From assembly GCA_020248915.1 (NCBI GenBank), contig JADCGP010000011.1:62001-126000 (forward strand): a stretch of 64,000 nucleotides of DNA. Reading direction: 5' to 3'. This document shows, piece by piece, positions 4,812-4,959 of the stretch. A model generated the notes under the pieces. The model saw only the letters and a list, made by a program, of their open reading frames with translations, was not told the origin of the DNA and did no database searches. The number at the start of each line of letters is the position of its first letter. Within the stretch, counting starts at the first letter, position 1. This DNA is from Rubrivivax sp. (lineage in GTDB: Bacteria; Pseudomonadota; Gammaproteobacteria; Burkholderiales; Burkholderiaceae_C). The position numbers were made by a program, and so were the translations under genes.

Positions 4812-4840
4812 AAAAAAAGGCCCCGGTTCGCACCGGGGCC
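4812..4840 (-). terminator. Rho-independent terminator of the small RNA
   Basis: Nine-bp perfect stem (4819-4827 with 4832-4840), GNRA-type GCGA loop, then seven consecutive U in the minus-strand transcript. It is the only textbook stem-plus-U-run terminator I found in the 64 kb. It lies upstream of hemJ, so it is best explained as the 3' end of the small RNA rather than of a protein gene. Confidence 0.85.
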
Positions 4841-4923
4841 GTGAAGCCTTATCGCTGTCATCACGCTAAGGCACCTGCTCAGGGAGGAAAAGCAGGGGCG
4901 GACCGCCTTGCAGCGGCCCGCCG
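4812..4923 (-). ncRNA. Candidate small RNA with anti-Shine-Dalgarno loop and intrinsic terminator
   Basis: About 112 nt in the hemJ-hemB gap, read on the minus strand. Order of elements: hairpin 1 at 4922-4897 (ten-bp stem including one G-U pair, loop UGCAAG); hairpin 2 at 4896-4874 (stem CCUGCU/AGCAGG) whose 11-nt loop UUUCCUCCCUG contains CCUCC, complementary to a Shine-Dalgarno sequence; hairpin 3 at 4872-4846 (stem GCCUUA/UAAGGC); then a nine-bp GC-rich hairpin at 4840-4819 with a GCGA tetraloop followed by seven U. A promoter with 18-bp spacing ends exactly at the predicted 5' end. No start codon with a sensible frame lies inside. The architecture resembles the toxic anti-SD small RNA family described from Betaproteobacteria; that identity is from memory and needs a covariance-model search. 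Confidence 0.75.
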
Positions 4924-4929
4924 AAAACT

Positions 4930-4959
4930 AGTTTAGCGGTAAAGTGTTTGCGTCGCCAA
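4930..4959 (-). promoter_or_regulatory. Sigma-70-type promoter of the small RNA
   Basis: On the minus strand TTGGCG (-35, 4959-4954) and TAAACT (-10, 4935-4930) are separated by 18 bases. Initiation about seven bases after the -10 falls at 4923, immediately before the first base of hairpin 1. The perfect palindrome AAACTAGTTT (4925-4934) overlaps the -10 and could be a protein-binding site. Confidence 0.6.

What the first reader, a model, noticed from the sequence alone, without database searches (positions are those of the whole stretch)
4812..4959. Anti-Shine-Dalgarno small RNA gene between hemJ and hemB
Promoter (TTGGCG-18-TAAACT), predicted 5' end, three hairpins and a nine-bp GNRA terminator with seven U line up to the base over 112 nt. 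The 11-nt loop of hairpin 2 exposes UUUCCUCCCUG, which can pair with Shine-Dalgarno sequences. I recall a toxic sRNA family with such a loop in Betaproteobacteria; this may be a member. Its place between two heme genes, each divergent from the other, is notable, and hemB itself has an AGGGGAG ribosome site that could pair with the loop.
Basis: partly seen in the sequence, partly recalled or inferred. Interest (0 to 1): 0.82.

Follow-up and report, generated by a model that had tools for sequence, protein, structure and literature searches.

The report
Anti-hemB small RNA in a Rubrivivax relative
This is a new copy of an already catalogued bacterial small RNA, "anti-hemB", that sits next to the heme gene hemB in many Betaproteobacteria and likely turns down other genes by covering their ribosome-binding sites, while its possible pairing with hemB is not conserved.

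Summary
Window 4812-4923 (minus strand) folds into three hairpins plus a terminator (z -5.38) and matches Rfam RF02837, anti-hemB (58.2 bits, cut-off 49.5). The family is already known as a transcript: ncS04 of Burkholderia cenocepacia, 105 nt, with RACE, Northern and Hfq co-purification (passages of PMC5688073, PMC4603805). The same anatomy gives 105 nt in Burkholderia ambifaria. Of 80 hemB loci, 59 carry it, all 59 divergent from hemB and with a CCUCCCU loop; all four helices show paired changes. A 5' hairpin outside the Rfam model is conserved in close relatives. The hemB ribosome site is not a conserved partner (mean percentile 0.60, n = 58). The -10 is conserved, the -35 is not. Best reading: a trans-acting, probably Hfq-dependent sRNA whose loop likely blocks Shine-Dalgarno sequences of other mRNAs. 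The mechanism is inferred from sister sRNAs; targets are unknown.

The parts
4954..4959 (-). -35-like hexamer TTGGCG
   Evidence: read; not shared in the 30-sequence comparison, so weak
4930..4935 (-). -10 hexamer TAAACT (relatives: CTGC-TAAAGT)
   Evidence: shared in the 30-sequence comparison, window included
4812..4923 (-). anti-hemB sRNA, predicted 112-nt transcript
   Evidence: RF02837 hit at 4812-4898, 58.2 bits; own 113-position model and covariation
4897..4922 (-). hairpin 1 (11 bp), outside the Rfam model
   Evidence: 8 of 11 pairs show changes on both sides in A1, 11 of 11 in A3 with 88.8% of cells paired
4874..4896 (-). hairpin 2 carrying the anti-Shine-Dalgarno loop
   Evidence: 98.8% of cells paired in A3, 3 of 7 pairs with changes on both sides; stems CCCGC/GCGGG, CCTGC/GCAGG, CACGT/GCGTG
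4881..4889 (-). loop UUCCUCCCU, predicted target-pairing seed
   Evidence: CCUCCCU in 59 of 59 hemB-linked matches; unpaired probability at least 0.98
4846..4872 (-). hairpin 3; loop block GAUGACAGC
   Evidence: 8 of 9 pairs with changes on both sides; GAUGACAGC or GUGUGACAGC type block in 26 of 59
4812..4840 (-). intrinsic terminator: 9-bp stem, GCGA loop, seven U
   Evidence: 8 of 9 pairs with changes on both sides
5002..6003 (+). hemB (porphobilinogen synthase), divergent neighbour
   Evidence: homologues 87% identical in a named Rubrivivax record and 81% in Rhizobacter records; gene name from the finding and general knowledge
4989..4996 (+). hemB ribosome site CAGGGGAG proposed as target
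   Evidence: pairs with the isolated loop in the window (-11.6 kcal/mol) but not conserved
4318..4752 (-). hemJ-like gene, same strand, about 60 nt downstream of the sRNA
   Evidence: ORF; homologues by tblastn; gene name from the finding and general knowledge

Best explanation
The segment is a member of the anti-hemB small RNA family (Rfam RF02837, ncS04 in Burkholderia) and likely acts in trans, presenting a CCUCCCU hairpin loop that would pair with and cover Shine-Dalgarno sequences of several mRNAs. Shown: fold, family match, covariation, invariant loop and divergent linkage to hemB. Inferred: transcription in this organism, help from Hfq through the U-rich terminator tail, and translational repression. 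hemB appears to be a neighbour and not the target. The other hairpins likely serve as 5' protection and as spacing for the loop.
For: RF02837 58.2 bits, above the curated cut-off. RF02837 above cut-off in 53 of 61 genomes (own included) and in 0 of 14 control genomes. 59 of 80 hemB loci carry the RNA on the strand opposite hemB; 12 of these 59 are in the model or identical to one of its sequences, so 47 are independent. CCUCCCU in 59 of 59 while stem letters change in pairs. Covariation score 0.466 against 0.169 in shuffles, 0 of 500 as high; a MAFFT alignment not fitted to the model agrees, 0.234 against 0.154, 0 of 500. B. ambifaria L073 (RF02837 85.6 bits) gives exactly 105 nt with +1 seven nt after TATGAT, the published ncS04 length. 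Passages report 3' RACE, a Northern and Hfq co-purification for ncS04. A preprint reports repression at ribosome sites by S17, related to RF02278.
Against: No transcript data for this organism. No experimentally shown target of RF02837 in the passages that I saw; predicted target lists of PMC5688073 are in supplements that I could not see. A pattern for the exact complement before ATG gave one hit in this genome and no recurring gene among the loci fetched from 61 genomes. Loop invariance could also reflect protein binding. ncS04 shows no expression change in seven conditions (PMC5688073 Table 2). 21 of 80 hemB loci lack the RNA.
Confidence: 0.72

Rival explanations
1. It is a hemB-specific regulator: the loop pairs with the hemB ribosome site, or the RNA is antisense to the hemB leader, so heme synthesis is its business.
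For: Divergent linkage to hemB in 59 of 80 hemB loci; window pairing -11.6 kcal/mol with CAGGGGAG, rank 5 of 44 called window genes; family name.
Against: hemB start regions pair no better than random stretches of the same loci: mean percentile 0.60 with 2 of 58 in the best tenth, 0.48 with 1 of 19, 0.62 with 1 of 9. In the window's own cofold the loop stays unpaired and the gain is only about 2 kcal/mol. Fifteen Comamonadaceae-type loci show, by eye, a GGCACAATTT block and no Shine-Dalgarno before the hemB ATG. Antisense overlap would need a hemB start site inside the sRNA, which was not testable here.
Confidence: 0.1
2. It is a member of the betaproteobacterial toxic sRNA (double-hairpin) family RF02278.
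For: Shared CU-rich unpaired stretches; RF02278 aligns at 15.1 bits.
Against: Score far below the cut-off of 50; four helices and not two; an RF02278 gene with a different sequence is elsewhere in the genome at 53.8 bits.
Confidence: 0.03
3. It is a 5' leader with an attenuator for hemJ, which lies about 60 nt downstream on the same strand.
For: hemJ beside it in the window and in 29 of 58 hemB loci in which a loop pattern found the RNA.
Against: hemJ was not found in the other 29 of 58 (stretches reach at most 2 kb upstream of hemB, L038 only 380 bases). In B. cenocepacia the downstream gene points the other way (PMC4603805 Table 4). Strong terminator with seven U.
Confidence: 0.06
4. The invariant loop binds a protein or another RNA (sponge or decoy) and does not pair with mRNAs.
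For: Loop is invariant in 59 of 59; no recurring mRNA target found.
Against: The loop holds a CCUCC anti-Shine-Dalgarno word; a sister sRNA with such sites is reported to repress at ribosome sites (PMC11722255, abstract and passages).
Confidence: 0.09

Closest known systems
Rfam RF02837 anti-hemB (Burkholderia RNA 7); ncS04 of B. cenocepacia J2315
   Same: Sequence and structure score over the cut-off, hairpin 2 loop, hairpin 3, terminator, position divergent from hemB; 105 nt in B. ambifaria by the same anatomy
   Different: 112 nt here; hairpin 1 is outside the 81-position Rfam model; hemJ on the same strand lies downstream, where B. cenocepacia has a convergent gene
Rfam RF02278 toxic sRNA / double-hairpin RNAs (bdhR1; related S17 of Bordetella)
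   Same: Exposed CU-rich anti-Shine-Dalgarno stretches, terminator, betaproteobacterial
   Different: Two hairpins, about 60 nt, three to five copies per Burkholderia genome, different sequence; score here 15.1 against 50
NmsR sRNAs of Neisseria (known to me here only from a passage of PMC5688073)
   Same: Unpaired CU-rich stretches complementary to ribosome sites
   Different: Tandem siblings; not compared by sequence here

Membership tests
RF02837 anti-hemB | Covariance model score above gathering cut-off | tested here: met
   58.2 bits against 49.5, full model 1-81
RF02837 anti-hemB | Location divergent from hemB (taken from the family's name and ncS04) | tested here: met
   Window and 59 of 80 hemB loci
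RF02837 anti-hemB | Expressed as a stable short RNA | not testable with these tools
   Reported for ncS04 in B. cenocepacia (PMC5688073 passages); no data for this organism
RF02837 anti-hemB | Hfq association | not testable with these tools
   Reported for ncS04 (PMC4603805 Table 4; PMC5688073); only the seven-U tail is seen here
RF02278 Betaproteobacteria toxic sRNA | Covariance model score above gathering cut-off | tested here: not met
   15.1 bits against 50
RF02278 Betaproteobacteria toxic sRNA | Two-hairpin architecture with CU-rich 5' end | tested here: not met
   Four helices, 5' end in a hairpin; contrast L002

The most novel reading that the evidence does not exclude
Anti-hemB is a betaproteobacteria-wide global translation regulator with one unchanging CCUCCCU recognition loop held by ever-changing stems, working beside the toxic-sRNA family on the same class of ribosome sites. 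It is not a heme regulator; hemB is only its address.
Probability: 0.45. Interest if true: 0.5.

Novelty: new member of a known kind. Interest (0 to 1): 0.3.

Why it matters
The family is named and detected, but in the searches made I found no experimentally shown target for it. The results here separate its address (hemB) from its likely activity, extend its recorded anatomy by a covarying 5' hairpin, and show a constant loop from Burkholderia to Gallionella-type genomes. That gives a clear, testable seed for target work. For this window alone the result is ordinary annotation.

Tried and rejected
Toxic sRNA membership: rejected by score. hemB as conserved target: rejected. Entries not scored: 2 of 60 entries gave no result (no ATG/GTG start near), of 32 stretches 19 were scored, 9 had no ATG/GTG near (then examined without a start, where TTG starts are seen) and 4 held no hemB. 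hemJ leader: not general.

Target search by exact complement before ATG: 1 hit in this genome; 38 for a shorter seed against 5 for the reversed pattern, as expected for a Shine-Dalgarno-like word; other such words were not run as controls. In 61 genomes (51 with a hit) only 30 loci were given to me, and some of these are the sRNA gene's own complement. Proteins of 60 residues or more read from loci L117-L175 were compared with each other, and one weak pair emerged, L123 with L156. Gene calls for the rank are a GC-position heuristic.

The class-wide search has 7 of 143 over cut-off and 69 of 143 at E 0.001; 3 of 14 control genomes also ring at that level (none over cut-off), so weak hits there are not counted. 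Five weak rows (E 0.07-0.7) were left out of the count of 59 by repeating with a stricter limit. The 21 of 80 without the RNA include Polynucleobacter, Comamonas, Delftia, Achromobacter, Advenella and Janthinobacterium records; whether those have it elsewhere was not tested.

Full report
What is there. The minus strand of window 4812-4923 reads as a compact sRNA gene: a -10 TAAACT at 4935-4930, a weak TTGGCG -35 at 4959-4954, three hairpins, and a 9-bp GCGA terminator with seven U. The fold is far more stable than 200 shuffles (-66.4 against -45.2 kcal/mol, z -5.38). The loop bases 35-43 of the RNA are open with probability 0.98 or more. The consensus promoter scan finds no site at its threshold.

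What family. Scanning the whole window against all 4227 Rfam families gives one match above a curated cut-off: RF02837, anti-hemB, 58.2 bits (cut-off 49.5), covering 4812-4898. The genome does hold an RF02278 member elsewhere (53.8 bits), with a different two-hairpin sequence. So the recalled family is a sister in style, not the family.

What is known. From passages (not whole papers): Khoo et al. 2012 (PMC3521395) list anti-hemB in a Burkholderia genome. Sass et al. 2015 (PMC4603805) give ncS04 as 105 nt, co-purified with Hfq, with flanking genes in the order left, right, left, so that the gene downstream of the sRNA is convergent. Sass et al. 2017 (PMC5688073; abstract, passages and part of the reference list) call ncS04 anti-hemB, with 3' RACE, a Northern, and no change in seven conditions by qPCR. 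That paper also made computational target predictions whose lists are in supplements that I could not see. I found no experimentally shown target for RF02837 in print; the searches were made, in the held open-access library only. For the sister family, a preprint on S17 of Bordetella (PMC11722255, abstract and passages) reports repression through sites at ribosome-binding sites.

Transcript ends. In Burkholderia ambifaria (L073, RF02837 at 85.6 bits), counting from 7 nt after the TATGAT -10 to the last U of the terminator gives exactly 105 nt, equal to the published ncS04 length. The same rule gives 4923 to 4812, 112 nt, in the window. This places hairpin 1, which the 81-position Rfam model leaves out, inside the transcript. 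Transcription in this organism remains a prediction.

Conservation. RF02837 is over its cut-off in 53 of 61 genomes, own included, and in 0 of 14 control genomes. Of the 30 loci fetched by that search (L005-L034), 28 have hemB within the stretch and 2 do not. From the other direction, 80 hemB loci with organism names were collected (the best 80 of 584). A 113-position model from 30 close sequences finds the RNA in 59 of 80, all 59 on the strand opposite hemB and upstream of it, in two Hydrogenophaga records about 1.5 kb away. Twelve of these 59 were in the model or identical to a member, so 47 are independent. Ten loci that I chose for an Rfam check (nine with a model match, among them Cupriavidus, Sideroxydans and Gallionella, and L116 from the class search) all pass the RF02837 cut-off.

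Structure evidence. On the 30-sequence MAFFT alignment, 16 of 36 pairs change on both sides and the covariation score is 0.234 against 0.154 in shuffles (0 of 500). Hairpin 1 has 8 of its 11 pairs with changes on both sides; hairpin 2 hardly varies there. On the 59-sequence alignment, 30 of 36 pairs change on both sides, score 0.466 against 0.169 (0 of 500), including 3 of 7 pairs of hairpin 2. That alignment is fitted to the model, so it leans towards the structure, and shuffles do not remove relatedness. CCUCCCU is present in 59 of 59 and CCUCCCUGA in 58 of 59, while the five-base stem occurs mainly as CCCGC/GCGGG, CCUGC/GCAGG and CACGU/GCGUG. Upstream, the -10 is shared among the 30 sequences in an ungapped comparison; the -35 is not.

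hemB as target. In the window the isolated loop pairs with CAGGGGAG before the hemB GTG start at -11.6 kcal/mol, fifth of 44 heuristically called genes. In a cofold of the whole sRNA with the hemB leader the loop stays unpaired. Across loci the hemB start region ranks at a mean percentile of 0.60 among same-length stretches of its own locus (58 loci including the window; 2 in the best tenth). Nineteen further loci give 0.48 (1 in the best tenth), and nine with no ATG/GTG start give 0.62 (1 in the best tenth). Fifteen Comamonadaceae-type hemB genes show, by eye, no Shine-Dalgarno. hemB is therefore best seen as the address. The hemJ side is also local: hemJ was found beside the RNA in 29 of 58 loci.

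Mechanism. An open, unchanging anti-Shine-Dalgarno loop on changing stems is what a trans-acting sRNA that covers ribosome sites would look like; Hfq binding of ncS04 agrees. This step is inferred. Exact complements before ATG give one hit in the genome and no recurring gene in the loci fetched from relatives, so targets remain open and a protein or RNA partner of the loop is not excluded.

Verdict. A real sRNA gene, a new member of a known and experimentally detected family, with a useful extension of its anatomy and a correction of the two interpretive leads.

Noticed in passing
L043, L045, L049, L051, L053, L055-L059, L062, L079, L085, L096, L105, just upstream of hemB: A recurring GGCACAATTT block lies shortly before the hemB ATG and, by eye, there is no Shine-Dalgarno; it looks like a -10 element and a (near-)leaderless hemB mRNA.
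   Followed up: partly
L005-L007, L009, L011-L013, L067, L070, L072, L097 terminator loops: The terminator loop carries a second CU-rich stretch (about CUCCCCUUU or UUCCCCUUU), absent from the window member.
   Followed up: no
window 4846-4872 and 26 of 59 relatives: Hairpin 3 loop keeps a GAUGACAGC or GUGUGACAGC type block in the Rubrivivax/Comamonadaceae set; a possible second contact site.
   Followed up: no
L002 (G000:C9:166644-166705, minus): An RF02278 toxic-family sRNA elsewhere in the same genome, 53.8 bits, over that family's cut-off.
   Followed up: partly
L008, L019: RF02837 matches above cut-off with no hemB in the fetched 3-kb stretch; unlinked or second copies.
   Followed up: no
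G166:C1:904217-904516: Two RF02837-like matches (about 47 bits each, just below cut-off) about 200 bases apart, a possible tandem.
   Followed up: no
L022, L023, L026, L027, L030, L032, L033: hemB of several close relatives appears to start with TTG.
   Followed up: no
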